Positions 1-34,132 of a stretch of 64,000 nt of DNA are shown piece by piece. The notes beneath the pieces were generated by a model. That model was given only the letters and a program-made list of their open reading frames with translations, did not search any database and was not told the DNA's origin. Numbering within the stretch: the first letter of the stretch is position 1; each line of letters begins with the position of its first letter. A program made the position numbers and the translations under genes. Source of the DNA: Hirsutella rhossiliensis (Eukaryota; Ascomycota; Sordariomycetes; Hypocreales; Ophiocordycipitaceae); assembly GCF_020360975.1 (NCBI RefSeq), contig NW_025408685.1:930001-994000 (forward strand), in the 5' to 3' direction.

Positions 1-2297
1 CCTAGGGCGGGCGGAAAGGTACGCTCACAATTCTGCACAGCTCTGTACGCTTCCTTAAAAATCGGGTCCTTCTCGGCCGTCTCATCCCAGAGCTGTTGTA
101 GGTCCGCCTCCTCGAAGATCTTCATCTCCGGCAGAACGAACGGCTCTGAGAAATTAGAACTCGCCGCATTGATGCGTGCTCTTGTAGTCGCCGGGATCGC
201 ATCATCCGGTATCAGCTGTATCATCCTTCCCTGTTCTCGCTCGTCGTCGATGCCCTGTGGCTTGTCTTGTTCACGGCGGGACAACGCATCGGGCACGACG
301 GCCTCACTTCCCGGTCGATACTCGAGCTTGAAGTCGAACTGGGACAATTCGGCTGCCCAACGGCTCTGCCGTTCCGTGAGCTTCTGGCGTGTCATGAAAT
401 ACTCCAGGTTGCGGTGATCGGTGAGGATTGTGAATGAGCCGCAGCTTCTGAGCTCGGCACTCCAATTATCGAGGCATCTCATGATGGCGAGCATCTCCTT
501 GTCGTGGATTGGATAGTTGTACTCTGCTGGTGAAAGTCGTTTCGAGAAGAAGGCGCACGCGTGTCGACGTCCATCTTGGTCCTCTTGCGCCAGGACGCCT
601 CCCAATGCATAGCCTGAGCAGTCCGTCTCCAAGAATGTCTGCAGACTCGGGTCCCACTGCTTGAGCACGGGCGACTCACAAAATCGTCGCTTCAGTTCAT
701 GAAACGCCTCGTTCTCCGCCCGCCCCCAACAAAAGGCAGTTCCTTTCTTCAGCAGGGCGTCTAACGGCTGAGTGATCTTAGCGTAGTCGGGAATGAAGAT
801 CCTGTAGTAGTTGGCGAAGCCCAGGAAGCTTCTGACACCCTTCACCGTGGTAGGGGCTTCCCATTCGCGGATGGCGTGCTGCTTCTCGGGGTCGCACGCG
901 ATTCCCTTCCCTGCATTGACAATGAACCCAAGGTACTTGACCTCTTGTACTGAAAACTCGCACTTCGCTGGGTCTAGATGTAGGCCAGCGTCAGCGAGTG
1001 CTTGGAGAACCTTTCGCACCTTGGCCTCGTGATCGGCCTTTGAACCACTTGAGTAAATCAATACATCGTCTAGGTACGCCGTGACGAAATCATCCAGCCA
1101 CTCGCGCAACACACTGTTCATGTATCGTTGGAACGATGCCGGGGCGCCACTTAGGCCGAAGGGGCACACGAGCCACTCGTAGAGCCCGAACCTCGTGCGG
1201 AATGCCGTCTTCCATTCGTGCCCGGGGGCCATGCGGATTTTGTGGAAGGCGGCCACGACGTCCAACTTGGTAAACCACTTGGCCTTGGCCAAGTTCTGCA
1301 ACGTCTCGGCGATGAGTGGCAGCGGGTATCGGTCGCGCTTGGTGATTGCGTTCAGCGCCCGATAGTCACAGCAGAATCGCAGCCCTCCACTTGGCTTCCT
1401 CACGAACAGCACCGGCGCTGCGGCCGCCGAGCTACTCGCTCGGATGAACCCTCTATCCAAAGGTCTTTCAGGGTCTTTCGCAAGACCAACAACTCTTCGC
1501 GTGACATGTTGTAGAGCGGTCCCCATGGCAGGGGCGGCTCGTTGCCATTCTTGTCAGGCTGCAAGTTTACCTCGTGGTCCACACCTGGCCGGTGTGGCGG
1601 CAGCTTCATGGCCTCCTCTGGTGAAAACAGGTTGCGGAACTCTTTCAACACTTCCGCTGGAACCATCTTGCTCGGATCAACTGGCGGCTTCGGTTGAAGC
1701 GCTTTTCTATGTCTGCCAAGCTGATCGCTTGTATCGAGAACGCATCGCACGTCTGGCGTCTCTTTGCACGCCGGCACTCTGCCGTGAACACGGCTGCCGA
1801 CACAAGTCTTGCGCTTCGAATTGCGCGTACTTTGGCGGGCTCTTCCTGCCCCATGAGGCGTATCGTCACGCCTGCTCTTCCGTGGAACACTTGCCGCTTA
1901 GCAGCGTCGTACACGACCTGGTTCCTCTCCATCCAAGGCCGGCCAAGGAACATATCCTGGCCGAGGCTTGGGACGACGTACGCAAAGATGCGTTCGTCGA
2001 AACCGGCGGTCTCCACAACGACAGCCACAACTCCCGGCGACGTGACACTTTCTGAGGACTCGAGAATCCCCGATCTCTCGAGGCTTCGAATCAACGAGAG
2101 GATCCGAAACTTCCGGACGACCGCTTCGTCAATCACGGCATAGCAGTCACATCCACTATCGACTAGGACGCGTATAGGATTGCCTCTGTTGAGCCGTGCG
2201 TTAACGAGCACGGGTCGACTATTCATACGCGGCTTGAACGCCTCCCAGTCTTGGACATCTGCCTTCGAATGCCCCGGCGCCCGCTTTCGCACCGGGG
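1..2297 (-). pseudogene. Gypsy copy 1 pol (protease, RT, RNase H), frameshifted
   Basis: From high to low coordinates the minus strand encodes an aspartic protease with VLVDSGCDCY (about 2160), a linker, a reverse transcriptase (YLDDVLIYSSG near 1060) and the RNase H region (ETDCSGYALGG near 620). The frame breaks near 1458: copy 2 encodes LKDLLDRGFIRASSS here, while this copy reads into LKDLWIEGSS and stops. Loss of one base in a short A/G run explains the shift. Unlike copy 2, the protease stays in one frame with the upstream pol start. It is a dead gene. Confidence 0.9.
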
Positions 2298-3413
2298 CTA
2301 GTCTTTTCCCATCGGCTCGTCATCCCCACTGGATGTTGCGGCCGACTCCGAATCGTCATCGCTCGCATCCGGCTGCTTCACCCGGGCGGCTCCTGACCGT
2401 TTTTTCTTCGCTTCGCCAGGAAAGACCAAATGAGCTGGGCATTCCGCGACGAGATGACCCTTCCGGCCGCATCGGTAACAGCGGCGCTCGTTCTTGGGCG
2501 CCACATCTGCGTTGCGACGTTTCTTCGGCTCGTGACCTGTACGGTTGACATCTGCCATTTTGGTATCTCCGTCTGCGTCGCGGCCTCGACTATCATGGGT
2601 TGCACCACCGCTTCGAAGGGCGTTCCTTTCTCTACACCTTCTAGACCTGAGGACAGCCTTTGAAGAGATCGGACCCATTCCGAGTACGTGGAGCGAGTGG
2701 GCGCCGCGTAGACAGTTGCCAGTCGCAAGTCCGGACTCAGGGCGCCCTCCAGGTAGCTGATTTTGACTTCTTCCGGCCAGGTGGCGCCGCCGGAATCAGC
2801 GAGTTCTTTCTCGAAGCGAGGAGCAGTGTCGCAAAGCTTTCCTTGTCTCTTTGCCTCAAGGATCGCAATTTGTCCAGCGCGCGAGTCCTGGCGTTCGGGT
2901 CCCCGTAGCACTCTTCCAAATATTGGAGGTACTGGTCCGGATCTGAGTCTCCACCCTTCCTCCGGCTTCTACATACGCGATCGTCATTTGCTGAGGGGCA
3001 CCCCCTAGTCGCGCGTAAATGTAGGCGAACTGGTCCGCCTTATTCCCAATTACCCTTCCGTCTACGCGAAGCTTGTTCTTCATCTCGCTCAGCCAAGCGC
3101 GAAACTTGGATCGAACGCCCTCGAATCGCGGTGGGTCTGGGAGAGTCGGCCTAGTCTTCCGCAATGATGTGTCGACCAAACGATTCGGTTCATGCAGAGG
3201 TTCCGCTCTGCTCTCCGACTCGGTCCCCAAGGGCGTTGGTCTCGAGGTCGTCAGACTGTCTTGCAGCAGTTGAATCTGCTCGCGCGTGGCGTCGCGATCG
3301 GCATCGCGGTCGGCACGCAAACTTTGCAACTGTTCAGCCATCTGGCTCATCATCTGCATGAGGAGCTGGGAGGTCCGCTCCGGGGAGCTCCCGTCTGCAA
3401 GGGTTGAGTCCAT
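2298..3413 (-). pseudogene. Gypsy copy 1 gag, frameshifted
   Basis: This is a capsid/nucleocapsid polyprotein starting at the ATG at 3413, 20 bases inside the LTR. The N-terminal part carries a short coiled-coil-like stretch (MQMMSQMAEQLQSLRADRD). The C-terminal part has one CCHC zinc knuckle (CYRCGRKGHLVAEC, about 2445-2490). Compared with the intact 370-aa gag at 45082-46194, the frame is broken near 2850-2900, and a second break lies near 2650. Gag ends at a stop at 2298 and pol follows in the -1 frame, as in copy 2, so a -1 frameshift between gag and pol is a family property. Confidence 0.88.
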
Positions 3414-6536: not shown

Positions 6537-6665
6537 TCTATATATCGTGATATGTTCAGCTCACTTTCTGTCCCTACCACTAATCCGATGTCTATTGTCA
6601 TTTAGACGTGCACTTTCTCTCCTCCTTTCTCGCCAACTTCGTTCTCGCTTACTCCCTTAGTGAAA
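6537..6665 (+). promoter_or_regulatory. Putative fungal promoter of the peptide synthetase
   Basis: A TATA-like run (CTATATATC, 6538-6546) is followed by a long pyrimidine-rich stretch (TTTCTCTCCTCCTTTCTCGCC, about 6612-6632) and the ATG at 6666. This is the usual layout of filamentous fungal core promoters. It implies that, if the gene is of foreign origin, it acquired a fungal promoter. Confidence 0.4.
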
Positions 6666-8357
6666 ATGGCTTTCATGGATGAGCTTGGAGCGACATCTGT
6701 TCACCAGAGTCACCACCGCCCCACTTACGCCGACTACGCGGCAATGCACGATAACACATTGCCACATTTGCCTTGGGAGCTTTACCGACGCTGGAAGATC
6801 TATGACAAGGCGACTGCTGTCATTTCTAGCAACGGTGAGCACATCAGCTACAGCCGGCTAGCGTGGGATGTAGAACGCAAATACACCGCGCTCAGCAAAG
6901 ACAACCTCCAAGCGGGGGATGTAGTCACATTGAGAGGTGACATGTGCGTGGATATGATTGCCACAGTTGTAGCCTGCTGGCTAAGAGGGCTGATAGTGGC
7001 CCTGCTTGACGAGAACCTCCCAGAGGTTCGCCGACGAAGGCTGCTAGACATTGTTGCACCGAGCCTCGTAATCGGCCATGATGAAGGTGCCGAAGGTCTC
7101 CCTAACGCCCAACACCGCACATATCATGGAATGACTGGCGTGTCAGAGCCTATTCGAAGCGCGGTGGCGGTTGATGCAGCATATATCGTATTCACATCTG
7201 GCAGCACTGGCGACCCTAAGCCGATCTTGGGTTCACATCAGGCACTAGCACACTTCATTTGCTGGCAGAGCCGGGAATTCGCCATCGGGAGGCATGACCG
7301 TTTCGCTCAGTTAGCGGCTCTCGGCTTTGATGTCATCTATCGTTCGGTGTTCACTCCGTTGTTTTCCGGCGCACAACTCTGGATCCCGCCATATACTGTC
7401 AGCGATGGGGAACTGGTGCTGAAGTGGCTGTGTCACCATCGAATCAACGCGCTGCACATAGTGCCTTGCATCATCAAAGCCTGGCTGTCTTTGTGTACGA
7501 CAATGGCCCTGCCCAATCTGCGATGGATCTTCAGCGCTGGCGAGACGTTACACGGCAAGGTGCTGCAGGATATTTGTCGGCAATGGGGCTTCTCTGGCCA
7601 GCTCGTTAACCTTTACGGACCCAGTGAAACCACACTGGCAAAATGTTTCTACCGCTGCAACCCAGCGGATGCCGTACGCGGCGTCATGCCCGTTGGCGGA
7701 CCATTGCCGAATACTGAAGTTTGGGTCATGGATGGTCAACGCCGCTGTGCACCCGGCGAACACGGTGAGGTGGTTATCCGCACCCCGTATCGCTCATTGG
7801 GCTATCTATCTGCCCCGGGGCTCGTGGCAAACAACATGTTCCGGTCCACGCCAAATATGCAGCATTCAAACGACCAATTGTACTTTACAGGCGATTTGGG
7901 GCACTACGACGAACACGGGCTACTGTATTTGCATGGCCGCTTGGACGACCAGATTAAGATCAACGGAGTGCGTATGGAACCTGGAGAGCTAGAAACTTTT
8001 CTGCATCGCTTACCGCAGGTCGAGGCGGCGGCAGTCTGCCATCACGATGGTCTGGTTGCTTATCTGGCCGCGCCCGAATCCTTGTCCGTCCATGAGGTCA
8101 ACCGACAGCTCAGCCGAACCTTTCCCGCCGTTATGCGGCCACGGGTGATAATAACACACCGACACTTGCATTATCGCTGCAAGGCGCCAACTCCGATCTG
8201 TGGACAGTGCGGCCAACCGGGCCATTCTGCGTCGACCTGCACCTCCGACGTTTTTAAGTGTGCAGCGTGCGGTGGAAAAGGAGCACACAAAGCTACAGAT
8301 CCTGGGTGCCCGGTGTATCGCCGGGAACTCGCCAAGTTACGACCGACACCTTACTAA
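6666..8357 (+). CDS. NRPS 5' portion: loading adenylation domain, truncated, fused to LINE zinc knuckles
   Basis: The A domain activates an amino acid with ATP. Counting from the ATG at 6666, core motifs are A3 YIVFTSGSTG (173-182), A4 GFDVIYR (Asp222, equivalent to the amino-binding Asp235 of GrsA), A5 NLYGPSETT (about 315), A7 GDLGHYDEHG (about 409) and A8 KINGVRMEPGE (about 431). The pocket read by eye is D-V-R-H-F-A-L-L-A, which I cannot assign; Arg at the position equivalent to 239 is unusual. After residue 499 the frame enters the inserted LINE and adds about 65 residues with two CCHC-like knuckles (CGQCGQPGHSASTC, then CAACGGKGAHKATDPGC), stopping at 8357. The A10 lysine needed for adenylation is lost. 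An in-frame GTG lies 6 bases upstream of the ATG; the ATG is preferred in a fungus. Confidence 0.85.
   Translation: MAFMDELGATSVHQSHHRPTYADYAAMHDNTLPHLPWELYRRWKIYDKATAVISSNGEHISYSRLAWDVERKYTALSKDNLQAGDVVTLRGDMCVDMIATVVACWLRGLIVALLDENLPEVRRRRLLDIVAPSLVIGHDEGAEGLPNAQHRTYHGMTGVSEPIRSAVAVDAAYIVFTSGSTGDPKPILGSHQALAHFICWQSREFAIGRHDRFAQLAALGFDVIYRSVFTPLFSGAQLWIPPYTVSDGELVLKWLCHHRINALHIVPCIIKAWLSLCTTMALPNLRWIFSAGETLHGKVLQDICRQWGFSGQLVNLYGPSETTLAKCFYRCNPADAVRGVMPVGGPLPNTEVWVMDGQRRCAPGEHGEVVIRTPYRSLGYLSAPGLVANNMFRSTPNMQHSNDQLYFTGDLGHYDEHGLLYLHGRLDDQIKINGVRMEPGELETFLHRLPQVEAAAVCHHDGLVAYLAAPESLSVHEVNRQLSRTFPAVMRPRVIITHRHLHYRCKAPTPICGQCGQPGHSASTCTSDVFKCAACGGKGAHKATDPGCPVYRRELAKLRPTPY
8151..8163. repeat. 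Left target-site duplication of the LINE in the NRPS
   Basis: ATAACACACCGAC, exact match to 8711-8723. It encodes part of the ITHR segment before motif A10. Confidence 0.95.
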
Positions 8358-8710
8358 CATACATCCTCTGTCTTAACCTTTCTTTTCAGCACAAACCCTC
8401 TACCTATACCTGTGGTTGCCCCACAGCTGGTAGGTTAGCTACACCGGACGGCTAAAGGCAGGTGGACTCTTCGTCAAATGCGGCGGAGGAGAGTGGTCTG
8501 TACCTCATCAGACAGGCTCCAGAATTGGAAAGGGACAGGTCAAATGAGCAAGAGACGGATTGAAGGATGTAAGAGAAATTTAGGCATTAGATCGGGACGA
8601 ATTCCTTGGGCTCGGAACCGAGTATTGGACAACTCTAGATTAGGCTTAGCGAGTCTGACGCAGTGCCTCTGACTATCGTCAATGGCGAAATAAACATCAT
8701 CATCATCATC
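8164..8710 (+). mobile_element. Truncated Tad-like LINE fragment inserted in the NRPS gene
   Basis: The 547-bp insert opens inside a LINE ORF1 C-terminus (three zinc-knuckle-like Cys/His clusters, stop at 8357), continues with about 330 bp of 3' non-coding sequence and ends in a (CAT)n simple tail at 8696-8710. It is 5' truncated, tailed and flanked by a 13-bp duplication, the signature of target-primed reverse transcription. The knuckle sequence differs from the LINE ORF1 copies at 16031 and 24245, so it is a separate family. No ORF2 is present, so the parent was itself an ORF1-only or internally deleted element. Confidence 0.9.
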
Positions 8711-8723
8711 ATAACACACCGAC
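8711..8723. repeat. Right target-site duplication of the LINE in the NRPS
   Basis: ATAACACACCGAC, exact match to 8151-8163, directly after the (CAT)n tail. The NRPS frame resumes here with THRLPTNANGKVDR, the A10 motif of domain A1. Confidence 0.95.
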
Positions 8724-11700
8724 TTCCTACAAATGCCAACGGCAAGGTCGACCGCCTGGCGCTGAAAAGCTTATCAAAGCAGTCAGCCATTGTGCGGTCT
8801 GACATGGGCCCCCGTGGCAAGACGGAAACACTCATGGCGCAACTATGGCAGAAGCATCTGGAATTGGAGGCGGTCGTTGCGCGCGACGACGATTTCTTCT
8901 TGCTTGGCGGCAACTCCATTTCCGCCATCATCATGGGTGCGGAGCTGAACCGACGGACTGGTAAACAAGTCCCGCTGAAGGGTCTCTTCCAGTTTAGTCG
9001 GTTAGAAGACTTCTGCCACTACGTGGACGGTATCGAATGTCGCAGCATGCCCTCGGAAAATGGTGTCATCAGCCACGACGAAGCTAGCGCCCATCACCCA
9101 TTTGGCCTGACAGATGTTCAACTCGCGTACCTGATCGGCCGGGATTCTGCCTTTGAGCTGGGTGGTGTGAGCACACACAACTATCGCGAAGATCGCTTTG
9201 CCTGGCTGGATGTTGCGCTACTGACTCGGTGCGTCAACCAGCTGGTGCGTCGACACTCAGCCCTGCGTACCGTTTACTCACTGGAACGCTTTCAACGCGT
9301 GCTGGCGGAGACGCCGTTGATACAGATCGCCGTTCAGGACGTGAGTCTTGATTCACCAGAACGTCAGAGGGATGCCCTATTGCTCTGGCGTCGAGAACTA
9401 GAGCGGCAGATGTTCGATACCACAACCTTCCCGTTATTTGAATGGCGAGTGACGCAATATCAAAACCACTGCGTGCTGCACTTCAGTTACGACGTGCTGA
9501 TTATGGACGCACGAAGCATGCGCATCTTCATGAGTGAGCTGAACGAGCTATACCGCTGTCCGGAGCAAGCTTTGCCGCCGTTGAGCATCACCTTTCGGGA
9601 CTATCAACTGGCCCACGAACAGCTGAAAACAACGCCACGCTACCGAGACGATCGACGATACTGGTATGACCGCCTGCCGGAACTCCCGTACGGGCCATCG
9701 TTAGCCACAGCCTGGCGCCCAGGTCGTGGAGGCTCCCAGGACTTCAAACGTCAGAGCTTCCGTCTAGACCCAAAAGTCTGGAAATGTTTGCAGGAGCGAA
9801 CTCGCCGGGAAAAAATATCCATGACAGTGCCCTTCCTGGCTCTTTACGGACAGGTACTGGCGCGTTGGAGCTCCGAGGAGCATTTCCTTATCAATCTCAC
9901 CTTGTTCCAGCGCGAAGACGTGCACCCAGACACGCAGAATCTGGTGGGCGACTTCACCGTACTTTCCTTGTTCGAGTACCGCCAGCGCCAAGAACCGGTT
10001 CGGCAGTTGCTGCGAGACATCCAGGAAAGGCTTTGGGACGACTTGTCGCATACGCTATTCACCGGCGTGGAGGTTCAGTCGGCTCTGGCACGGCATAACC
10101 AACACCAAGGTGGCAAGCTCATTGCCCCAGTGGTTTTTACCAGCATGTTGGGCTTCCCGCACAGCGACGTCGGCTTTCTCACGGATGAGTATCGGGGCTG
10201 TGACTATGCTAGGACGCAAACTTCGCAGGTGTGGCTGGATAATAACCTCTACGAAAGAGACGGCTCTTTGGTGGTTGAGTGGGACTACGTCTGCCAACTT
10301 TTCGACGAGCAACAGATAAGCGATATGTTGGAAGCTTACCAACTGGCCATCGTCTCACTTGCCAACGGCGATTGGGACAAGCCGCTGCACATTCCTCTCC
10401 CTGCCGCTGATGAGCTGCTGCTGCGCCAGTACAATGACACGGCCTGTTCGGACTGCATGATGCCGGCCACGTTGCATGAACAGTTTTTAGTATCTGCCGA
10501 GAGGTTTCCGGACGCTCCTGCTGTGGTTGCGGCGAGTGGTGGCCAGACGACTACTTATCGACAGATCGGGGCAAGAGCTGCGCAGCTGGCACATCGACTT
10601 CAATCATCCGGCGTCTCCCGAGGAGAACGGGTCATGATTTGTGCAGAAAAGGGACCCTGGCTGGTGTTCGGCGCTCTTGGCATCCTGATGGCGGGCGCGG
10701 TGTTTGTCCCCGTCAATGTGCAGTTGCCGGTCGGACGCCTCCGCGCCATCATTTTGCAGGCGGGGATCCGCCATCTTGTTATTACCAAGCAGCAATTACG
10801 TCGCCTGTCACAGCATAAAGAAATTGCCGTTGAGGTTGGCATTACCATTACGTTCCACGACGTGTCAAACTGCAACGCGCTGGCCGAATTCGACACCGTG
10901 CCGCCTGCCGTCAGCGTAGCAATGAATGACCCTGCGTACGTCATTTTCACATCCGGCTCTACAGGCAGACCAAAGGGGGTGTGCATTTCGCACGGCGGTG
11001 TATTGAACACTCTGCGAGATATCAATATGCGTCTGGCGCTGACGTCGGATGACCGCACGCTTTGCCTGTCCAATATCAGCTTCGATCTGGCGATTTACGA
11101 CGTCTTCGGGCCCTTAATGCTGGGTGGAGCGGTCGTCATGCCGGCGGAGCGCGCACTAGATCGACCAGACGCCCTGATACAAGTGCTGGATGATTGTGAC
11201 GTCTCTGTTTACAACAGTGCTCCGGCCGTGATGGCGCTTCTCGTACAGTCCGCTGGTGGAGGCCGACATGGCAGAGTGCGTCACGTCTTGCTGAGCGGCG
11301 ACTTCATCCCGCTCGACTTGCCCGAGCGTATCAGGAAGATATTTCCAGCGGCGAAACTGCTCAGCTTAGGCGGGGCAACGGAGGGAAGTATTTGGTCTAT
11401 CTGTTACTCATTGACCCTGGTCGAGAAGCACTGGACCAGCATCCCCTATGGCAAGCCACTGCTCAATCAGCAGGTTTGGATCCTAGACGCAGCCCGCAAT
11501 CCCTGTCCTGTCGGCGTTGCCGGCGAGATCTATCTGGCCGGCTGCGGTGTGGCGCTGGGTTATGAAGCCGATGCCGAGAAGACGGCAGCGTTTTTCGGAC
11601 AGTTGCCTGACGGGCAGCGCTATTACCGCACCGGGGACCAGGGCATAATGCACCGAGCAGGCTACGTTGAGATCCTCGGGCGCCTGGACAACCAGGTGAA

Positions 11701-14101
11701 AATTAATGGCTTCCGCATCGAACTGGGCGAAATTGACAGCGTGCTTCAGAGTCACTCTGCAGTGCAAACCTCGCTTTCACGAGTCATCGCCCACGGCGAA
11801 GCGTCAGCCCAGAAGTACCTAGTGTCTTACGTCGTGCCGCTGGTGTTTGATCGCCTGGCATTTAAGCTGGAGAAGCGTGGGATAAGAAATGGATTAAATG
11901 CCTCGGGAACTGTCATGGACTTGAAGCCGCTCACGCCACAGACGATCCTGTCTGACGCTGCCCAACGAGCGCTGGTCCGCAAGAGCTATCGCCACTACCA
12001 GGCGAACCACCAACTAACGCTGGAAGTCCTGCAGCCGTTGATCCATACTACGGTGCAGACTGCAAATAGCAAACATCGTCTGCGCATGTCTCCGGCAACG
12101 CTGTGGGCGGAGCTTGCGGTATTGCTGACGCCTCTGCGTGCTTTCAAGCATCGGATAGAAGGCTTGAACAAGTACATCTATCCTTCTGCAGGAGGACTTT
12201 ATCCTGTGAGAGCTTACGTGACGGTCTCCCGCGCTTGGAGCGGGTGCGGGGGCCATTACTATTACCACCCGGAGAACCACGCACTGATGCAGCTTGTAAG
12301 CGGCCCCGAACTGCTGCCGGAAACGGGAATTTACCTGCATCTCAGTACGTTTCTGCCAGCAATTGAGCCGGAGTATCATGAATATGCGCTGGTCTACAGC
12401 AGTCTCGAAGCAGGAGGGATGCTGGCGCTGCTGGCAGATTTTGGCCGCCTGAGTCCTGTAGCGCCGCTGCCCGTTGCAATCTGCTCTGAAGATGAATTAT
12501 GCTTGGCAAGCTATTGGTTGGATGAAGAAGGGGGCATAGACATGCCCTTACAGCTGCCCGATCATACGCTGCTCTTACTCAAAACTACAGCCGGCTGGGG
12601 TGGCTACTGCTTCCAGGAAAGGCAGTTCCAACGCTGCGGCGATATCCCACTCAACTTCAAATTTGGCCAGGATGAGGACAATGACGCCATCATCAATCAG
12701 GCCTCGGCGCTACTGCTGCTACCGCCGACAATACCGACACTGGAACAGGGGCGTCTCGTGCAGCGCATTAGCGAGAATCTGCTGACGTCTTCATTGGGCA
12801 GTTGTGTATTGGGTCAAGTCAAGCTGGAGGATCAACTACTTGCCTATACAAGGGGCCGCAACTTCCCCGCAGCGCTAGCTATCGGCAAGATACCAACCGA
12901 CGACATGGCCAACGGCGACATAGAAAACATCAACGTCACGAGGACATTGTCTGATGAGTTGCGGGCCCATTTACAGCGGCAGCTCCCTACCTACATGGTA
13001 CCTGATGAGATTATATGCGTGCCGACTTTGCCATTAACGGCCAACGGCAAGGTAGATGTGAAGGCGTTGCCGCACCCACCGTCGCTGTTGAACGGCAACG
13101 ATGAAAGTTGCCCTCCAGGAGACCAGTATGAGGAATCCCTGCAGGCATTGTGGACCGAGGTACTGCAGGCTGGACCTAGAGGTAATGTTCATGCCGATTT
13201 TTTTGTTCACGGTGGCAATTCGTTCGATGCGATCTTGCTTGCTATGAGAATCAGCAAACGTTTTGTGCGCAAGGTGGCAACCGCATTTGTCTACAAACAC
13301 CGCACCATCGCGCAGCAGGCCAAAGCAATTGTCCAGTGCGTGCTCCAACCGGCACTTGATCACATCGAGCTGAATGAGGCGAAGCATTCCAAGCGGCTAG
13401 TACTTTTCTCGCCATCGGACAGCGGCGCAGAAGCCTATTATGCGCTGGCCCAGGCATTGGCTAACGACGTCAACGTGATTGGTATCAACAATTTCTTCAT
13501 CAACTACCCCGAGAAGGTGACCGCAGATTGGTCTGTGGCACTTGATTTCTATTGTCGGCAGACAGAAGATGTCGTGCAGCAGGCGCCAGAGGCTCCAGTC
13601 TGGCTTGGCGGCTGGTCCATGGGCGGCAACATCGCAGTGGCGGTAGCCGAGAGACTAGCGGGATGTCCGCAAATCCGCTCGCAGCTTATCATCTTCGACT
13701 CTCTCCCGGGTTACAGTCCCGCAGAGCGTGAAGTTAGGGAAAACACCACCGACGTATGGAGCCCATATCACCCAGATAACATCACCTATCGTCAGTTCGC
13801 GATGGCTGGCGATTCGCGACGCCGTTATTACCATTATGTGGATTGCCTTTTCGACCATTTGAGCGCCATGCAGGTCGAGCGTTGCCGCCATAAGTTACTG
13901 TTGGTCAAGTGCCTCGAGCCTTTGGGCCATTATCGTTCGGATGAGCCGGATAACGGCTGGGGTAGGATTGCAAATGATGTCGTGGTATATGCCGTGAAGG
14001 CTCACCATTATAATCTAATGATTGAGAAAACGGCAATTGAAGAGGTGGCTTCAATTGTGCGGCGGGTACTGTACCAAGGACCTTGCTTCGAAATCATGTG
14101 A
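8711..14101 (+). CDS. NRPS 3' portion: PCP-Cy-A(Cys)/Ox-PCP-TE
   Basis: Residues are counted from 8663, where the open frame begins inside the LINE tail. In order: A10 of module 1 (LPTNANGKVDR, about 21), PCP1 with phosphopantetheine Ser85 in LLGGNSIS, and a heterocyclization domain (about 143-590) with D277VLIMD282 replacing the HHxxxDG of condensation domains and QTSQVWLDNN near its end. A2 (about 603-1085) has YVIFTSGSTG at 759 and SFDLAIYDVF at 806-815. Its pocket reads D-L-Y-N-L-S-L-I-W, the known cysteine code. A SagB/McbC-type FMN oxidase (about 1100-1380, YPSAGGLYPVRAYV at 1173) sits before A10 of A2 (LPLTANGKVDV, about 1457). PCP2 has Ser1520 (HGGNSFDAI) and the TE has GWSMGG (Ser1652). 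The stop is TGA 14099-14101. The frame has no start codon or promoter of its own since the LINE inserted. Confidence 0.93.
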   Translation: MTHRLPTNANGKVDRLALKSLSKQSAIVRSDMGPRGKTETLMAQLWQKHLELEAVVARDDDFFLLGGNSISAIIMGAELNRRTGKQVPLKGLFQFSRLEDFCHYVDGIECRSMPSENGVISHDEASAHHPFGLTDVQLAYLIGRDSAFELGGVSTHNYREDRFAWLDVALLTRCVNQLVRRHSALRTVYSLERFQRVLAETPLIQIAVQDVSLDSPERQRDALLLWRRELERQMFDTTTFPLFEWRVTQYQNHCVLHFSYDVLIMDARSMRIFMSELNELYRCPEQALPPLSITFRDYQLAHEQLKTTPRYRDDRRYWYDRLPELPYGPSLATAWRPGRGGSQDFKRQSFRLDPKVWKCLQERTRREKISMTVPFLALYGQVLARWSSEEHFLINLTLFQREDVHPDTQNLVGDFTVLSLFEYRQRQEPVRQLLRDIQERLWDDLSHTLFTGVEVQSALARHNQHQGGKLIAPVVFTSMLGFPHSDVGFLTDEYRGCDYARTQTSQVWLDNNLYERDGSLVVEWDYVCQLFDEQQISDMLEAYQLAIVSLANGDWDKPLHIPLPAADELLLRQYNDTACSDCMMPATLHEQFLVSAERFPDAPAVVAASGGQTTTYRQIGARAAQLAHRLQSSGVSRGERVMICAEKGPWLVFGALGILMAGAVFVPVNVQLPVGRLRAIILQAGIRHLVITKQQLRRLSQHKEIAVEVGITITFHDVSNCNALAEFDTVPPAVSVAMNDPAYVIFTSGSTGRPKGVCISHGGVLNTLRDINMRLALTSDDRTLCLSNISFDLAIYDVFGPLMLGGAVVMPAERALDRPDALIQVLDDCDVSVYNSAPAVMALLVQSAGGGRHGRVRHVLLSGDFIPLDLPERIRKIFPAAKLLSLGGATEGSIWSICYSLTLVEKHWTSIPYGKPLLNQQVWILDAARNPCPVGVAGEIYLAGCGVALGYEADAEKTAAFFGQLPDGQRYYRTGDQGIMHRAGYVEILGRLDNQVKINGFRIELGEIDSVLQSHSAVQTSLSRVIAHGEASAQKYLVSYVVPLVFDRLAFKLEKRGIRNGLNASGTVMDLKPLTPQTILSDAAQRALVRKSYRHYQANHQLTLEVLQPLIHTTVQTANSKHRLRMSPATLWAELAVLLTPLRAFKHRIEGLNKYIYPSAGGLYPVRAYVTVSRAWSGCGGHYYYHPENHALMQLVSGPELLPETGIYLHLSTFLPAIEPEYHEYALVYSSLEAGGMLALLADFGRLSPVAPLPVAICSEDELCLASYWLDEEGGIDMPLQLPDHTLLLLKTTAGWGGYCFQERQFQRCGDIPLNFKFGQDEDNDAIINQASALLLLPPTIPTLEQGRLVQRISENLLTSSLGSCVLGQVKLEDQLLAYTRGRNFPAALAIGKIPTDDMANGDIENINVTRTLSDELRAHLQRQLPTYMVPDEIICVPTLPLTANGKVDVKALPHPPSLLNGNDESCPPGDQYEESLQALWTEVLQAGPRGNVHADFFVHGGNSFDAILLAMRISKRFVRKVATAFVYKHRTIAQQAKAIVQCVLQPALDHIELNEAKHSKRLVLFSPSDSGAEAYYALAQALANDVNVIGINNFFINYPEKVTADWSVALDFYCRQTEDVVQQAPEAPVWLGGWSMGGNIAVAVAERLAGCPQIRSQLIIFDSLPGYSPAEREVRENTTDVWSPYHPDNITYRQFAMAGDSRRRYYHYVDCLFDHLSAMQVERCRHKLLLVKCLEPLGHYRSDEPDNGWGRIANDVVVYAVKAHHYNLMIEKTAIEEVASIVRRVLYQGPCFEIM

Positions 14102-15965: not shown

Positions 15966-17410
15966 GGGGATCCGACGAACTCGACAAGAAGCCTGAAGCG
16001 AACGCCAGCTAGGCATTGAGGGGCCTCATCATGGAGACGCCGGCTGAGGCCGTGATCATGGTGGGGCGAAGCGCGTCGCCTGCGTCGACACCCGCGAAAA
16101 GATCGACACGCGTCGTGAGGCCAAGCACCAAAATTCGAGAAGCCGCGCGACAGCCCGACGATCTGGCGGAGGAGACAACACGCGCAACTAGGCTTGCAAC
16201 GCGCATTGCCTCGGACGATGTCGCCATCAGTGACGCGACTGAGCGGCGCAAAGTTGCCAGCAGCAGCAGTGGCGCGAACGAAGGCCGAACCATGCTCCAG
16301 AAAGTTCTCGAACTCTTGAGCGAGTCACGTCAAGAAACGCAAAAGCTCAGGCGAGCGATAGTTGCGCAAAACGAGATCATATCCAAGCAACAGCAGATGA
16401 TCCAGGAAATGGATCAACAAGGGAAAGAGATGAGAGATGAGCTTCGTCACATCCGAGCGCAGTTAGAGACCCTGGCTACGCCCGCATCTTCTCTGCAGAG
16501 CAGTCCGCAGATGTCGTATGCGAGCGCTGCAGGGTCATCGCCGACGATCCAGACAATGAACCGGGGCACCGTACCAGCAGCTAAATCGGCACGAACAGCC
16601 GTCAGCGATAGTCTCTACTGTACGGTGGACACATCACGAGTCGAAGAAGCGAACAGGTGCCAGACGCAGATCGGCAACATCCGAAAGGCCATAGAGAGCG
16701 ACATGAGAAAGAGTCAGAGGCAGGAGACTTGGAAATGCGCAGCGGTCGTGACAGACGCTCGAAACCCCGACCGGATCAAAATTTTATGCAGAGACCAAAC
16801 CGAGTTGAAGCAGGTCAAGGAAGCAGCGCAGAAGACGGTAACTTCGGGAGCCAGGGTACTGAGAGATCAGCTTTACCCTGTCAAAGTCGACAACACCAAG
16901 CGTACCGCAGTGCTGGACGCCGAAGGCAACGTTCTGCCGGGCGCAGCTGAGGCGCTCGGAGCCGAGAATTACGTCACGATTGCCAAGATCACCTGGCTTA
17001 GCAACAGAGAGAAAGCCAAAGCGTACGGGTCAATGGTGATCTATGTCACTAAAGAGAGTGACGCGCAAAGACTTCTGGACGGCGTGTGGTTCGATGTTGC
17101 GGGAGAGTCCGCCTGCACCAATGTTTTTGAACGCCGCGTAGGACCGATTCAGTGCTTCAACTGTCAAGAGATGGGACACAAGGCGTTTTCATGCAAGAAG
17201 CCGCAAAGATGTGGCAGATGCGCGAAAGCAGAACATCACCACAGAGAATGCAAGGAGACAGTGCCAAAGTGCGTGCCCTGCGGTGGACCACACGAATCGT
17301 ACAGCCGGAACTGTCGGGCGCGGAACCCTGGGGATGAGACGCAGGCAGCGTCTGGCCCTTCGGGCTAAGCAGCGGAAGCGAGAATCCACTTAGGATCGAT
17401 TATGGCACTA
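15966..17410 (+). mobile_element. Tad-like LINE copy 1: 5' end plus ORF1 only
   Basis: It shares GGGGATCCGACGAACTCGAC onward with copy 2 (from 24180) at well over 95% identity by eye, through ORF1 to ATTATGGCACTA at 17410, where the two part abruptly. LINEs normally lose their 5' end; this copy keeps 5' and ORF1 but lacks ORF2 and a 3' tail, so it was cut after insertion or descends from a rearranged parent. Confidence 0.88.
16031..17368 (+). CDS. LINE ORF1 (Gag-like RNA-binding protein)
   Basis: Intact 445-aa frame from the ATG at 16031. A basic, Ala/Arg-rich N-terminus is followed by a coiled-coil stretch (about 90-145, QKVLELLSESRQETQKLRR then MIQEMDQQGKEMRDELRHI), a central RNA-recognition-like region, and three C-terminal zinc knuckles: CFNCQEMGHKAFSC, CGRCAKAEHHHREC and CVPCGGPHESYSRNC. 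ORF1 proteins of the Tad clade bind element RNA in the nucleoprotein particle. No enzymatic domain is present. Confidence 0.88.
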   Translation: METPAEAVIMVGRSASPASTPAKRSTRVVRPSTKIREAARQPDDLAEETTRATRLATRIASDDVAISDATERRKVASSSSGANEGRTMLQKVLELLSESRQETQKLRRAIVAQNEIISKQQQMIQEMDQQGKEMRDELRHIRAQLETLATPASSLQSSPQMSYASAAGSSPTIQTMNRGTVPAAKSARTAVSDSLYCTVDTSRVEEANRCQTQIGNIRKAIESDMRKSQRQETWKCAAVVTDARNPDRIKILCRDQTELKQVKEAAQKTVTSGARVLRDQLYPVKVDNTKRTAVLDAEGNVLPGAAEALGAENYVTIAKITWLSNREKAKAYGSMVIYVTKESDAQRLLDGVWFDVAGESACTNVFERRVGPIQCFNCQEMGHKAFSCKKPQRCGRCAKAEHHHRECKETVPKCVPCGGPHESYSRNCRARNPGDETQAASGPSG

Positions 17411-17442
17411 CCCGTTGGTCAAGGTGTGGGGCCCACAGCAGC

Positions 17443-17509
17443 CCAACTAAGTGTCTTCGCCACTTAGTTGGCCCAAAAAATCCGGCACAGCCCAAAAAAT
17501 CCGGCACAG
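17443..17509. repeat. 11-bp stem hairpin plus 19-bp tandem duplication
   Basis: CCAACTAAGTG and CACTTAGTTGG (17443-17471) form a perfect stem around the 7-base loop TCTTCGC. Two exact copies of CCCAAAAAATCCGGCACAG follow at 17472-17490 and 17491-17509. This may be the end of a DNA transposon whose transposase remnant follows on the minus strand; I see no partner end. Confidence 0.6.
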
Positions 17510-17802
17510 CAGCCCCCTCAATTTGGGGTGTAAAATCAAGGGAATTTCTACGCTTCGCTTCATGGTGCCGTCAATGCGACTTCAAATAGCTAAATTTTAC
17601 ATGTGATTAATAGCTGCGGATCACGTAAAGACGCAAATGACAACGAAAAAAGAAAAAAAGCACGTCTTTGGGCCTATTTAGGAGCTGCCGCCGTCCAGTC
17701 GAAGAGATAAGAAGACCGTGTTTGTGAGTCCAAATAGACGTATTATGTAGTAATTTCGCCTTTTGTGCGTCTCTGAAAGCTATTTTATCCATATCTGTGT
17801 TC

Positions 17803-18462
17803 CTAGAGCGTCTGCTGTATCTTGTTGTACGATCGGGTGCGCGGTCGAGGGCATGGTGTACCGACTACCGCTTCAACCGCTGCTAACGGCGGCGAGGAAG
17901 GTATATTCTCTTGCGTATCGAGGAAACTGTCCTCGTCCTCATCATCGGCGCCATCCTCACTGTGTTTGTCAAGATCGAGGCCTGTGAAATAGACGGTATC
18001 GTCACTGCCGGGCAACGACGACATATCTGTAAGTGGGCGAGGTCGGGTCGTTGCGCGCGCCCTGATATCTCTGGCGGAGTTATTTCTCTTCGTGGTATCG
18101 TAGAAAAAGGAATCCTTGGATGGTTCTTTGAGCTCCCGCATGAGGGTATCGCAACTTTGCTCCAGGGTGTAGAACTCAACGTCTCGTCCCGTAAACGCTA
18201 GCCAGGGCTTGAAGTTCAATGTCTTGACTCTGCCATTGACTAACTGCTTCTTCCCGACTTTATAGTCTTCTCGGATCTTCTGCATCTCTCCACGAACTCG
18301 TTTAAGATGCATCCTTATCTCCTGGCTATGCAAGAAAGCCCAGAAAGCTGTCGAGGATAGCCCCGACCTACGGAAGAAGGTTGAAGAGATCCGGGCAAGC
18401 CAGAAAGATTGGAAATAGCAACCAACGGCCCGGGTTCGAGGAAGGATAGTTGGGACGGCCAA
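17803..18462 (-). pseudogene. Possible C-terminal remnant of a pogo-type transposase
   Basis: The minus-strand frame reads KIREDYKVGKKQLVNGRVKTLNFKPWLAF..., then acidic, Ser-rich sequence (DGADDEDEDSFLDTQENI) and stops at 17803. The layout resembles the C-terminal extension at 27705-28241 of the pogo element at 27460-30044: a short basic helical part followed by an acidic tail near the element end. The catalytic region is absent and the upstream boundary is lost against the Copia fragment. Family assignment is by resemblance only. Confidence 0.35.
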
Positions 18463-19612
18463 TCCGGCTTTCGTCTACCCAGCCGGGTCATCGGCCGCAG
18501 CATCGGAATACCCGCTCCGCCTATCTGCGATCCTTGACTCAGGAGCTTCCCTTCACGTGTGTAACACACTCAGCCGATTCCGGTCATTCAGAAAGGCCCA
18601 GAAAGACTACCTAATCACAGGGGAATCAGAAGTCCGGATTGAGGGGTACGGCAGGGTTAATTTCACGATGACCTTACCGGACGGATCATTCCAAATACTT
18701 CGGCTGAAAAAGGGAGCTTACGGCCCAAGCTTTTCAACGAGCTTGATTTCCTTCCAAACCCTACGAGATGAAGGAATCTATTGGGACACCTTCTCGGAGC
18801 CTACAAGGCTAGTACGGCGGAACCAAACGATAGGGATTCTTCAAAGGAAATACCGTCAATTCGTCCTGGAATTCAGGCCAACAGCAGAAGCGGAGACCGT
18901 CAATTTCGACACAGTCTTCCAAGCAACAAAATCTCGAAGGGCCGGGACCAAAGACCCTCGCCCGGCCAGCCAAGGAGACGGCAACCTCTGGCACGCCCGC
19001 CTCGGTCACCCGGGCCCACTGGCCCTCCACAAGCTAGGCCTTCGGAACGGGGTTCGAATCAAGGGGCCAAAGACTGTGGAGTGCGAATTCTGTGCTCAGG
19101 GGAAGGCCAGGAAACAAATTTCCCGCAGACCCCCTGACCGGGAAAGAAATAGCCCTTGTCACGAGATTTGGATCGACTGGACCGACCTTTCCGCAGACCA
19201 CGAAGACTTCGTCCGTGTGATGTTTATCACAGACGCCTTTACAGGAATGGTTTTCCCCTATTTTATGCGGACCTACCAAGAGAAGCATAATTGGGCTGTG
19301 TTGAGGGATTTTGTCCATTGGATGAAAGACCGATACGGCTTCGAAGTGAAGATCGTACGCTCAGATGGGGAGCTCTTTACGAAGAAGATCACAGCCTGGT
19401 TACGACAGAAGGGCATTTCAGCGGAAAGATCGGCTTCAAACACCCAATCCCAGAATGGAGGGGCCGAAAGATCGGGAGGCCTTTCTATAGAAAGAGGCAG
19501 GGTAATGAGAATCGCTTCAAGGCTCCCGCATAACCTCTGGAAAGAGATCGTGGAAGCCGCATGTTATCTTCGAAATCGAACTCCAAGAGAGCCGTCTCAC
19601 GAAGAGAGCATG
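18446..19612 (+). pseudogene. Copia retrotransposon fragment: protease and integrase
   Basis: The frame covers a protease with DSGAS (Asp at 18536), a GAG-pre-integrase domain with LWHARLGHPGP, a zinc-binding CEFCAQGKARKQ and the integrase core: D in WIDWTDLSADHEDFVRVMFITDAF, D in IVRSDGELFTKK, E in SASNTQSQNGGAERSGG. Gag upstream and RT/RNase H downstream are missing. At about 19612 the frame runs into LTR-like sequence. It cannot move by itself. The RT half at 34133-36214 could derive from the same family but is not contiguous. Confidence 0.88.
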
Positions 19613-19627
19613 CAAGTGAGCATTGAT

Positions 19628-20075
19628 TGTTTTAATAATAGGTGGTTTTTTTTTGTGTTCCGTCGTGTCTGTCCCTCTTGCAATGCCCTCTTCTAGGCTC
19701 CCTATTTATATCCCTTGGTTCCCTATTGATATCCCCTTTTCAGTTGTATAGGTACAATATCTAGGAGGCTGGGCTCCTTTCCCAGCCCCCTTTGCATACT
19801 GACTTTCCCTAGTCGCCGAGGGTTCTTTCAGCTTCCCCCGTATATGCAGTCTCTCTACAGCCTATGTGGCTGCCTAATGCGGTCTCCTAATAGCCTTCTG
19901 CAGCCTCAGAACTCTCTACAGGCTGCCTTTCGATCTAGCCTGTCGGGGCCCTTAGCTGTATACCCCTTATGGTCACCTCGAGCTCAAGATCTCAGACTTG
20001 CTTCGCGACAAGCCGAGGGTCCAAATTGTTGCGATTGAACTTACTTCTATTCAATTCTGTCTGACAGCTCTCAAC
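19628..20075. repeat. LTR-like sequence after the Copia fragment
   Basis: It begins TGTTTTAATAATAGG right after the truncated integrase and shares an ordered set of short blocks (TATATCCCT, GATATCCC, TTTTCAG, TATAGGTA) with the solo LTR at 14299-14730. Its right border is unclear; CTCAACA near 20075 is a possible end. Two hairpins follow: ATAGTGGCAC/GTGCCACTAT (20086-20109, 4-base loop) and CTTGGTC/GACCAAG (about 20149-20171). Confidence 0.4.
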
Positions 20076-20109
20076 ATATATATACATAGTGGCACGTCCG
20101 TGCCACTAT

Positions 20110-21007
20110 CCAGTGACTCACCACTTGTAAGTGCTGCCTAAACATGTCTTGGTCCATATCTCAGACCAAGTCAACACTCGTGCCCCAGCGCAACCCCCAC
20201 GGAGCGCACCAGTGATAGCCATGGAATCCTATGTCGCGCTCCTTTCCGATATGTCGCTTTCTTGTCCATGATGAGGAGCCGCCCGTCGCTCAGCTGCTGA
20301 ATGTTCGATATGGTCTGGTGCATTGGAATGGGCACCACTAGCCACTCTTGGGAGAGCCGTGGAACAGCTCTCAGGAATGGTATCACGGGAGAAGGTCGAA
20401 GAATAGTTGCAGAGAGAACATCTCCAGGTCTGACAATTCGGACATGGCGTATCGAGGGCGGCGGAAAACCACCCCGAGCTGCAGTGACACTATGGGACAT
20501 GGGGTCAGTTATCCAATTTCAAGGTATTCCTAACAAGCGAGCATACACACTGCCAGTATTCGCCTCTCATGGTGCGTACGTACGGGAGCGAGCGATGATG
20601 CCCATTGCTCCGAGTTACGACACCCACTGGAAGACGGGCGGTAAATATACCCCGTGCCAGGGGGTTGGCACTGGTCGCAGCGGCTGCGCCGCAGCTGAGC
20701 CCCCAGCGTCCTGCCGTTGGTCATACGTAATGGGAACCGGTCCAGGTAGTGTGCTTGGGACTCGAACCCCTTCAGTGGTTCAGCCAAAGCCTCATTCGCC
20801 CCTGTGCAACCAGTTGGCGAGTTGGCCGTGAGGAGTCGGCATAAAGCGTGTATAGACTAGGGGAATGCTTACGTTCAATAGAGGACCCGTTAAATACTTT
20901 TCAGAATATATGATGCTGGTTCAATGTCCAGTTTGACCACGTCCCGGCTTTCGAGGCGAAGCAACTATTCCACAAGCTTGCATGTAGCCAAGACGGAAAG
21001 TGGTTGG

Positions 21008-21063
<56 letters not shown>

Positions 21064-21702
21064 GCAAGGCAACTCGCCGGCAAACACGCGTGAGAAATCA
21101 GCAGTGCGGCACCGCCTTCCCGCCCCCAGTCATGCAGTGCAGTAAGTAACATCGGCACCGGGAGGTCAGGCGGGCTGTGTGGGGCCGATTCCCCGGCACA
21201 TCGCCGTTGCTCGACAACCCGCGGGTCTCTGATGAGAAATGAATCAACGGCTGCTGGTTCAGTTCGGTCTCCGGTAATACATGCTTGTGCCGCATGCAGA
21301 TCAGCACTTGAGCGTCAAAGACTTGAAAAAGCAGCTGGTAGCAGTTAGAAATACCCGCCTCGAATCAGCCCTGCAGGGCCAAACCAACCGACCGCCACTC
21401 CATCCCATCCCGCGCTTGCAGCCCGTCAACCTCACACCGTTGCCCGATTTCAGCTCGCTGCAAGGTGTCAGACACATTTGCACACCTCACAACTATATAT
21501 TTAGGCTCGCTGCTACGTGTCAGACGGTGAGGGGCTTATGTCGCCCAAGCTAAAGGGCTAAATAATGTTCAAGCGCTCCCTGTATGTATTTCCCTGCTTC
21601 AAGCGTCTGGGGTTTTTACCGTACTGTCAAGTCTTTCTTGCCCCGCTACTGCCATTCTCCAAGAAACAGATTTTAACCGCCTGATACCAATCTCTCAGTG
21701 CC
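20110..21702. other. Intergenic; contains (CA)26 microsatellite
   Basis: No supported gene. A perfect (CA)26 run occupies 21009-21060. Overlapping frames at 20171-20831 on both strands lack recognisable domains. The last 100 bp would hold the promoter of the HET gene. Confidence 0.5.
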
Positions 21703-23979: not shown

Positions 23980-24143
23980 GCACGGAGGCACCAGAGCAGT
24001 GACGCAGGAACGATGGAAGTACCCGTAGGCTTGGCCCACGGGTAACAACCCCGGCGGCGGCGGGGCTCGGCGTTGGGGAGTGAGACTACGGCAGGCTACC
24101 CGTGCCACGCCCCACTTATTTCGCGTTCGTTCCTCACCAGCTC

Positions 24144-24156
24144 CATAATCAGCTCA
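24144..24156. repeat. Left candidate TSD of LINE copy 2
   Basis: CATAATCAGCTCA, exact match to 25878-25890. Confidence 0.75.
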
Positions 24157-25877: not shown

Positions 25878-25890
25878 CATAATCAGCTCA
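25878..25890. repeat. Right candidate TSD of LINE copy 2
   Basis: CATAATCAGCTCA, directly after the (ACAT)n tail; the same bases read NQL in the frame of LINE copy 3. Confidence 0.7.
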
Positions 25891-30044: not shown

Positions 30045-30046
30045 TA

Positions 30047-31378: not shown

Positions 31379-31679
31379 CGGGCCATGTACTGATCAAGAA
31401 CAACCATACTAACACAACAGCCTTCAACTTGGCAGACCGCGCTTCAGTCGCTGAAGGTAGGACGCTGAACACTTGGAGAAACTGACCTTCAAGTAGGCCT
31501 GTCATGTCACAGCGAACGAGGCTGGAAACAGATGAAAAGAAGCGTGGGGCTTGGGGTGAGATGGAACAATGTACAGTAGGTAAGTAGCTTAGCGTAGTGG
31601 CTCTATGGGGGAACCCTCCGGGCGCAATACAAAAAAAAAAAAAAAAAAAAGCTGGTGCTGGACACCACAGTAGCCAGTA

Positions 31680-33443: not shown

Positions 33444-33445
33444 TA

Positions 33446-33671
33446 CTAGGGGGGCCTAAAAGTCGGCCAAATCCCCGTCCCCGATCCTCAGGGACGGGGG
33501 GGCCACTGACCGGGAAAAAGGACGCTCACACGGAAAAGAAATCAAGGTACATAGAAATGTACCTTAGTGCACGCAAAACTGAAGTTTCCATTCTTAACAG
33601 CATATCCTTGATTATTCAATATCATCTCCGCACTTCCATTAGATAACCTTAAGCTATGCAACAACACCATA
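33446..33671 (-). mobile_element. End fragment of pogo transposon 1 family
   Basis: It repeats, in inverted orientation, the right end of transposon 1 (29830-30044): the 92-bp TIR and then AAGAAATCAAGGTACATAG and about 115 further bases. It starts exactly at the TA shared with transposon 2. At 33670-33671 another TA is followed by the end of a third pogo family. Confidence 0.9.
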
Positions 33672-33820: not shown

Positions 33821-33825
33821 GTGCA

Positions 33826-34054: not shown

Positions 34055-34132
34055 CCCCCTTAGCTGTTGCCTATCCCTAGCAGAGGGAACAGATACAACC
34101 AGACTTGCAAGGGCAACCTCAGTTGAGCCGGG

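What the first reader, a model, noticed from the sequence alone, without database searches (positions are those of the whole stretch)
8711..14101. Fungal genome carries a bacterial-style Cy-A(Cys)-Ox-PCP-TE thiazole-forming module
The Cy domain has DVLIMD, the A2 pocket reads D-L-Y-N-L-S-L-I-W (established cysteine code), and a SagB-type oxidase with YPSAGGLYP is embedded before A10. Together with loading module A-PCP this predicts an aminoacyl-thiazole carboxylic acid. Heterocyclization plus embedded oxidase is common in bacterial NRPSs and rarely described in fungi.
Basis: partly seen in the sequence, partly recalled or inferred. Interest (0 to 1): 0.88.

Follow-up and report, generated by a model that had tools for sequence, protein, structure and literature searches.

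The report
Bacterial thiazole synthetase inside a fungus
A nematode-parasitic fungus carries a large enzyme gene for making a sulphur-containing ring (thiazole) that most likely came from bacteria related to Serratia and is shorter than the bacterial version, and in this strain a recently inserted jumping gene has broken its first part.

Summary
The finding holds. Window 6666-14101 encodes A1-PCP-Cy-A2(Cys)-Ox-PCP-TE. The host is Hirsutella rhossiliensis. Nine A2 pocket residues (DLYNLSLIW) equal those of bacillamide synthetase BmdB. Cy keeps DVLIMD. The embedded oxidase models as a two-half nitroreductase-like fold.

The gene looks bacterial in origin. ORF 8711-14101 is 67% identical over 1788 columns to a Serratia quinivorans NRPS, and A1 is 63%. 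The genome's other A domains reach 35% (two short scraps apart). A degenerate second copy carries the fungal RIP signature.

Two things are new to the reading. (1) The two-module form nests inside three-module forms. PCP-C-A was lost at or near the repeated NANGKVD (A10) motif, so A1 now feeds the second carrier. (2) This allele is broken: a 547-bp 5'-truncated LINE-like copy with a 13-bp target-site duplication separates A1 from its A10 lysine and carrier.

Likely product of the unbroken form: an aminoacyl-thiazole acid. A1 (DVRHFALLA) has no assigned substrate. Expression and product are unknown.

The parts
6666..8147 (+). Loading adenylation domain A1 from its first ATG up to just before the insertion; pocket DVRHFALLA
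   Evidence: PF00501 E 2.8e-50 on the frame read from 6663; 63.0% identical to the N-terminal A domain of P0237 over 473 columns; pocket read (position numbering recalled); ATG at 6666
8151..8163 (+). Left copy of the 13-bp target-site duplication
   Evidence: exact repeat of 8711-8723
8164..8710 (+). 5'-truncated LINE-like retroelement fragment with CCHC knuckles and an ATC-rich tail; brings an in-frame stop at 8355-8357
   Evidence: 42 matches in the own genome, itself and some fragments included; five other copies run on upstream, this one does not; sequence
8711..8723 (+). Right copy of the 13-bp target-site duplication
8732..8755 (+). A10 motif NANGKVDR of the loading A domain, now cut off from it
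8837..9025 (+). Carrier protein PCP1, derived from the second carrier of the three-module bacterial form
   Evidence: PP-binding, residues 43-105; 57 of 79 identical to the second PCP of P0237, 9 of 47 to its first
9206..10342 (+). Heterocyclization (Cy) domain; DVLIMD at 9491-9508, Thr and Asp of APVVFTS / QVWLDN kept
   Evidence: PF00668; BmdB Cy E 5.5e-67; motifs; conserved
10493..11716 (+). Cysteine adenylation domain A2 up to motif A8; pocket DLYNLSLIW
   Evidence: PF00501 E 7.9e-82; alignment to BmdB
11843..12940 (+). Embedded FMN oxidase (Ox) between A8 and A10 (limits approximate); RKSYR at 11978, YPSAGGLYP at 12179-12205
13043..13066 (+). A10 motif NGKVDVKA of A2, after the oxidase
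13109..13330 (+). Carrier protein PCP2 (serine in HGGNSFDA, 13208-13231; limits approximate)
   Evidence: second PP-binding stretch counted (position not printed there)
13394..14098 (+). Thioesterase; GGWSMGG at 13607-13630, Asp near 13694, His near 14000
   Evidence: PF00975 E 2.7e-9, residues 1562-1680; triad aligned

Best explanation
This is a thiazole-forming NRPS gene that an ancestor of Hirsutella rhossiliensis took up from a Serratia-like bacterium, now broken in this strain. Mechanism of the unbroken form: A1 activates amino acid X and loads it on PCP1. A2 loads cysteine on PCP2. Cy joins X to Cys and cyclodehydrates it to a thiazoline. The FMN oxidase embedded in A2 oxidises it to a thiazole. 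TE releases an X-thiazole-4-carboxylate. Shown here: domain order, motifs, A2 pocket, bacterial relatives, nested tree, loss of one module, RIP-eroded second copy, LINE-like insertion. Inferred: each reaction, the release mode, direction of transfer, and that this allele makes no product because A1 has lost its A10 lysine and its covalent carrier. Unknown: X, the product, expression, and when the module was lost relative to the transfer.
For: 67% identity over 1788 columns to S. quinivorans P0237; A1 63%; nested tree. In the own genome the Cy domain has 1 match, and no other A domain comes close to A1. The gene sits between frames that look like fungal retroelements and holds a retroelement fragment with 41 other matches in the same genome, some of them partial. 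A second degenerate copy shows CpA mutated at 126 of 161 sites against 15 of 125 CpC and 21 of 121 CpT, taking the window as the older state. dN/dS 0.22 over 286 codons between the copies fits past selection for function. Pocket and catalytic residues are kept. Ox fold.
Against: No product, transcript or enzyme assay. The hosts of P0002, P0003, P0011, P0078, P0236, P0238 and P0239 are unnamed, so direction and number of transfers rest on the named rows (Serratia, Neisseriaceae MAG, Pseudomonadota MAG, Thiotrichales). The tree is midpoint-drawn, 15 of its rows differ in letter make-up, and the fork joining P0237 has 93/92 only; the 10-row oxidase tree does not recover the two-module clade. No close relative was found in the GTDB species contigs (two peptide patterns, 28 loci, best 39%) or in 392 genomes drawn from the family of the Xenorhabdus hominickii genome (14 with a weak match, best E 1.1e-15 at 29%), so the donor lineage is thinly sampled. 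GC3 of the gene (0.60 for A1, 0.63 for the rest) is like that of seven host frames (0.59-0.68), so composition gives no independent sign of transfer.
Confidence: 0.8

Rival explanations
1. The gene still works in this strain as two pieces or by splicing: ORF 6606-8357 gives an A1 lacking A10, the downstream ORF starts at the ATG at 8804 and gives PCP-Cy-A-Ox-PCP-TE, or an intron removes the insert.
For: Downstream ORF is intact from 8804 on, with the catalytic residues checked. The NCBI gene model P0001 splices across the region.
Against: A1 without the A10 lysine should adenylate poorly (recalled). P0001 also leaves out parts of A2, Ox, the A10-PCP region and TE that are open and conserved here, so its introns look like prediction artefacts. 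The insert is young (best copies 99.8% identical), so an open frame downstream proves little.
Confidence: 0.1
2. An old, vertically inherited fungal gene, or one passed from fungi to Serratia.
For: Duplication, RIP erosion and dN/dS 0.22 show the family has lived in the fungus for some time. Rows with unnamed hosts could be fungal.
Against: The fungal row nests inside three-module rows, with bacterial MAGs outside. Near-full matches of other A domains in the same genome reach 35% only.
Confidence: 0.05
3. Bacterial contamination or an assembly chimera.
For: No introns needed; only one near-complete copy.
Against: A host retroelement lies inside the gene. Degenerate pieces, partly with fungal RIP mutations, lie on the 12-Mb contig C1. 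The same region is in the NCBI Hirsutella record on a 1.08-Mb contig.
Confidence: 0.01
4. The ring is not a thiazole: the oxidase is inactive or does another reaction, and the product is a thiazoline, for instance a metal chelator.
For: Several named hits of the Cy search are siderophore-type synthetases (MbtB-like, yersiniabactin-like). The general-base tyrosine of BmdC was not located here.
Against: FMN-binding RKSxR and YPSA are kept in relatives; fold like azoline oxidases BmdC, ThcOx, McbC over the first half.
Confidence: 0.12

Closest known systems
Serratia quinivorans NRPS P0237 ('Tyrocidine synthase III', 3280 aa)
   Same: 67% identity over 1788 columns; same A1 pocket, Cys pocket, Cy, embedded Ox, TE
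   Different: Has one more module: A-PCP-C-A-PCP-Cy-A-Ox-PCP-TE. The fungal form lacks its PCP1-C-A stretch and is broken by a retroelement fragment
Bacillamide synthetase BmdB with oxidase BmdC (PDB 7ly4, 7ly7)
   Same: Cy and A2 align over 898 query residues, E 1.3e-165; nine pocket residues equal
   Different: There the oxidase is a separate protein that dimerises (PMC8795117: start of abstract, passages); here it is embedded, and the chain ends in TE
Embedded-oxidase NRPSs (EpoB, indigoidine synthetase IndC)
   Same: Ox inserted in the A domain; for IndC a pseudodimeric insert is suggested (passages of PMC8795117). The model here matches the 487-residue 3eo7 over residues 1-351
   Different: Different products and neighbouring domains; neither Ox domain was aligned here
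Secondary-metabolism genes of bacterial origin in eukaryotes: Basidiobolus (PMC7466969), bdelloid rotifers (PMC11258130); a bacterial-like KS domain in Gigaspora (PMC7732545)
   Same: Synthetase-type genes or domains of bacterial origin in eukaryote genomes (listings and passages)
   Different: The terms 'heterocycl' and 'thiazol' had no hits in those three texts; here a near-complete synthetase has a close named bacterial relative

Membership tests
Cy (heterocyclization) domain | DxxxxD in place of the C-domain His motif (PMC1894796 passage) | tested here: met
   DVLIMD at 9491-9508; both Asp in 14 of 14 relatives that cover them, P0078 does not
Cy (heterocyclization) domain | Thr and Asp needed for cyclodehydration (recalled for BmdB) | tested here: met
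   Thr of APVVFTS and Asp of QVWLDN, kept in 15 of 15 relatives
Cysteine-activating A domain | Pocket code DLYNLSLIW | tested here: met
   Equal to BmdB at the aligned positions; equal in 14 of 15 relatives, P0074 has F for the fifth residue. Activity not testable here
NRPS thiazoline oxidase (Ox) | FMN-phosphate and ring contacts Arg145, Arg146, Ser147, Arg149 of BmdC (PMC8795117 passage) | tested here: met
   RKSYR at 11978, Lys for the second Arg; the Arg, Ser and last Arg in 15 of 15 relatives, with Arg for Lys in P0011 and P0078. Equivalence to BmdC judged by eye; the alignment is shifted there
NRPS thiazoline oxidase (Ox) | Nitroreductase-type fold | tested here: met
NRPS thiazoline oxidase (Ox) | Active-site tyrosine (Tyr260 of BmdC) | not tested
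   Outside the sequence alignment; no superposition read residue by residue
Type I thioesterase | Ser-Asp-His triad | tested here: met
   Ser, Asp, His present and kept in 14 of 14 relatives that cover them, P0040 does not; which Asp and His act is recalled from the family
Bacillamide synthetases | Oxidase as a separate protein in a three-protein system (abstract start) | tested here: not met
   Oxidase embedded, TE at the end
Gene of bacterial origin in a fungus | Nested among bacterial rows and set in a fungal chromosome | tested here: met
   several rows unnamed
Gene of bacterial origin in a fungus | Absent from other fungi | tested here: inconclusive
   Only 120 of 339 hits listed and many unnamed; no fungal genome set to search

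The most novel reading that the evidence does not exclude
The two-module rows (window, P0002, P0003, P0011, with the fragment P0078) are all eukaryotic, from one transfer of a three-module Serratia-type thiazole synthetase that then lost a whole module at the A10 motif. The result would be a eukaryotic family of shortened bacterial assembly lines with a new, smaller thiazole product, kept under selection, duplicated, and only lately lost in this strain.
Probability: 0.3. Interest if true: 0.75.

Novelty: new variant of a known kind. Interest (0 to 1): 0.62.

Why it matters
It gives a clear case of a near-complete heterocycle-forming bacterial assembly line in a fungus with a named bacterial relative, and suggests a natural way to shorten such enzymes: deletion between repeated A10 motifs that keeps the carrier-Cy pair together. 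The RIP-eroded copy and the fresh LINE-like insertion record how fungal genome defence and transposons undo acquired chemistry. The fungus attacks nematodes, and a Serratia strain of this species group was isolated from a nematode (PMC6113876), so a shared habitat is a testable setting for the transfer.

Tried and rejected
Viral contigs: 81 stretches matched a pattern, none encoded a relative. Plasmids: 2475 records matched, all under 60% identity. GTDB species contigs: 101 stretches matched two peptide patterns, 28 loci, best 39%. 392 genomes drawn from the family of the Xenorhabdus hominickii genome: 14 with a weak Ox match. So the close bacterial relatives are either not among the genomes held or were missed. 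The one genome without a match says nothing by itself. I considered reading the A1 substrate from DVRHFALLA; no assignment is made, as I know no matching code. I considered composition as evidence of transfer and dropped it (GC3 like host frames; those frames come from methyltransferase-domain loci and their kind was not checked). An early script for the duplication found nothing and ended in an error; one search repeated it in upper case. Papers: ten searches showed no report of a Cy or thiazole NRPS of bacterial origin in Hirsutella or another fungus. Lists were cut (20 of 40, 20 of 99, 20 of 27, 20 of 38, 15 of 24 and 10 of 13 papers shown). Besides listings I saw passages of eleven papers; none was read whole. 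Absence in this open library does not show absence in print.

Rows dropped: the tree uses the window and 18 of the 352 proteins held, chosen by score, coverage and presence of the oxidase; P0001 was left out as the same gene. Long outgroup branches (P0143, P0106, P0074, P0128) are placed unsurely. P0078 and P0040 are fragments, so their module number is unknown.

Full report
What is there. The region 6666-14101 (+) is one NRPS gene split in two frames. ORF 6606-8357 holds a loading A domain (first ATG 6666) and ORF 8639-14101 holds PCP-Cy-A-Ox-PCP-TE. The Cy domain is closest to bacillamide synthetase Cy (5t3e, E 5.5e-67), then EpoB and Irp2. Over Cy-A2, BmdB aligns at E 1.3e-165. The nine pocket residues of A2 read DLYNLSLIW; the same letters stand in BmdB at the aligned positions and in 14 of 15 relatives. 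Position numbering of the pocket, and cysteine as the substrate of BmdB A2, are recalled. In the window the PCP serines, Cy Asp/Asp/Thr/Asp, A2 A10 lysine, Ox RKSxR and TE Ser/Asp/His are present.

Whose genome. The same protein region is in NCBI under Hirsutella rhossiliensis (P0001, 100% over the query stretch), a fungus of Ophiocordycipitaceae that parasitises nematodes (PMC4507137, start of abstract). The window is 930001-994000 of contig C19 in an 81.8-Mb, 40-contig assembly. Frames around the gene are mostly retroelement- and transposase-like by eye.

Where the gene came from. The nearest named bacterial protein is S. quinivorans P0237 (3280 aa): 67% over 1788 columns for the downstream ORF and 63.0% over 473 for A1. 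In the own genome the Cy domain has 1 match. For A1 there are 71 matches, itself and the gene's own A2 included; the others reach at most 35%, apart from two scraps of 55 and 60 residues at 36% and 42%. In a 19-row tree the window pairs with P0002 (100/100). The window, P0002, P0003 and P0011, with the fragment P0078, form a clade (100/100); P0236 joins them at 100/100, P0237 at 93/92, and P0238 and P0239 complete a 100/100 group. Neisseriaceae (P0015), Pseudomonadota (P0040) and Thiotrichales (P0266) rows lie outside. P0003 was scanned as two-module and P0237 and P0239 as three-module; P0002, P0011, P0236 and P0238 are judged by length and match positions. The oxidase-only tree of 10 rows keeps window, P0002 and the C1 copy together (100/99) but leaves P0003 unresolved and sets P0011/P0078 apart, so the two-module clade rests on the longer alignment. 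P0011 and P0078 sit on a long branch (0.93). Direction bacteria to fungus is the simplest reading.

Loss of a module. P0237 has three AMP-binding, two Condensation and three PP-binding stretches. The window's first PCP matches the second PCP of P0237 at 57 of 79 and the first at 9 of 47; P0002, P0003 and P0011 behave alike, and the same holds against P0236 and P0239 (P0238 showed only two NGK-D sites). So A1 is joined to the carrier that stands before Cy, and the join lies at or near the repeated LPxNANGKVD motif. The A1 pocket DVRHFALLA is the same in 7 of 11 relatives and begins DVRN in the other 4, so the starter amino acid is probably unchanged while the product is one residue shorter.

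The break. ATAACACACCGAC occurs at 8151-8163 and 8711-8723, 560 bp apart, which accounts for the frame difference. Between them lie 547 bp with CCHC knuckles, a stop and an ATC-rich tail. The genome search lists 42 matches including this one, some of them fragments. Of ten copies fetched, seven on the plus strand were compared upstream: five share 200 bp at 95-100% identity, the window copy and L064 do not; three on the other strand were not compared. The best copies are 99.8% identical. This looks like a young 5'-truncated non-LTR insertion. It parts A1 from its A10 lysine and carrier. Intact relatives exist (P0002, 2288 aa: A1 86.6%, Cy 89.3%, A2 92.6%, Ox 82.8%, PCP-TE 89.6%).

A second, decayed copy. 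C1:269211-270085 matches residues 942-1235 (76-88%) and C1:273898-274884 matches 1234-1558 with many stops. A further piece, residues 1563-1785, lies at C1:654643-655310. That all belong to one former copy is inferred from their complementary ranges. DNA sampled beside the inner ends is AT-rich; most of the roughly 380 kb between was not read. In the decayed part 222 of 320 differences are C>T or G>A, at CpA in 126 of 161 sites, CpG 60 of 120, CpC 15 of 125, CpT 21 of 121 (the window taken as the older state). This is the mark of RIP, which is reported as supported in H. minnesotensis (PMC4255773 passages). Over 286 codons of the undecayed part dN is 0.104 and dS 0.476, ratio 0.22. The family has therefore lived in the fungus, was probably under selection, and was duplicated or taken up twice.

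How it most likely worked. X on PCP1 is joined by Cy to Cys on PCP2, cyclised to a thiazoline, oxidised by FMN-Ox to a thiazole and released by TE. Steps after domain and motif identification are inference from BmdB/BmdC and EpoB chemistry. In this strain the line probably stands still for want of a working loading module.

Ecology, as an idea only. Serratia grimesii BXF1, earlier named S. [quoted passage not shown] H. rhossiliensis parasitises nematodes. Contact on nematodes is plausible and untested. For S. quinivorans NFX21 most NRP clusters have low similarity to known ones (PMC13074693 passages); whether P0237 is among them was not checked.

Verdict. The enzyme kind is known and transfer of bacterial synthetase genes to eukaryotes is known. 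A heterocycle-forming line with embedded oxidase, shortened by one module, in a fungus, was not met in the searches made (lists partly cut).

Noticed in passing
G000 C1:269211-274884 and C1:654643-655310 (L013, L014, L075): A second copy of the same NRPS, broken into pieces, one with strong RIP-type mutations; its 3' piece lies about 380 kb away, with AT-rich DNA beside both inner ends.
   Followed up: partly
window 8164-8710 and 41 other matches in G000: A very young, multi-copy LINE-like family with CCHC knuckles and ATC-rich tail; at least five other copies are longer at the 5' end.
   Followed up: partly
P0001 (NCBI model of this locus): The public gene model starts inside A1 and leaves out open, conserved parts of A2, Ox, the A10-PCP region and TE; its introns look like prediction artefacts.
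   Followed up: partly
window 3-2319, 16013-27463, 28238-36244, 41268-46206, 53394-54988: Frames that look by eye like Gypsy, Copia and LINE retroelements and DDE transposases lie around the gene.
   Followed up: no
window 22282-23979 and 55323-57539: Frames resembling a HET-domain protein and a fungal FunK1-like kinase (by eye, not searched).
   Followed up: no
window 46828-47664: A frame with several near-identical 19-residue repeats (DVDFNILDPDAVMAQSPLI).
   Followed up: no
A1 pocket, window 7323-7640: Pocket DVRHFALLA is unchanged from Serratia to the fungus but has no substrate assigned.
   Followed up: partly
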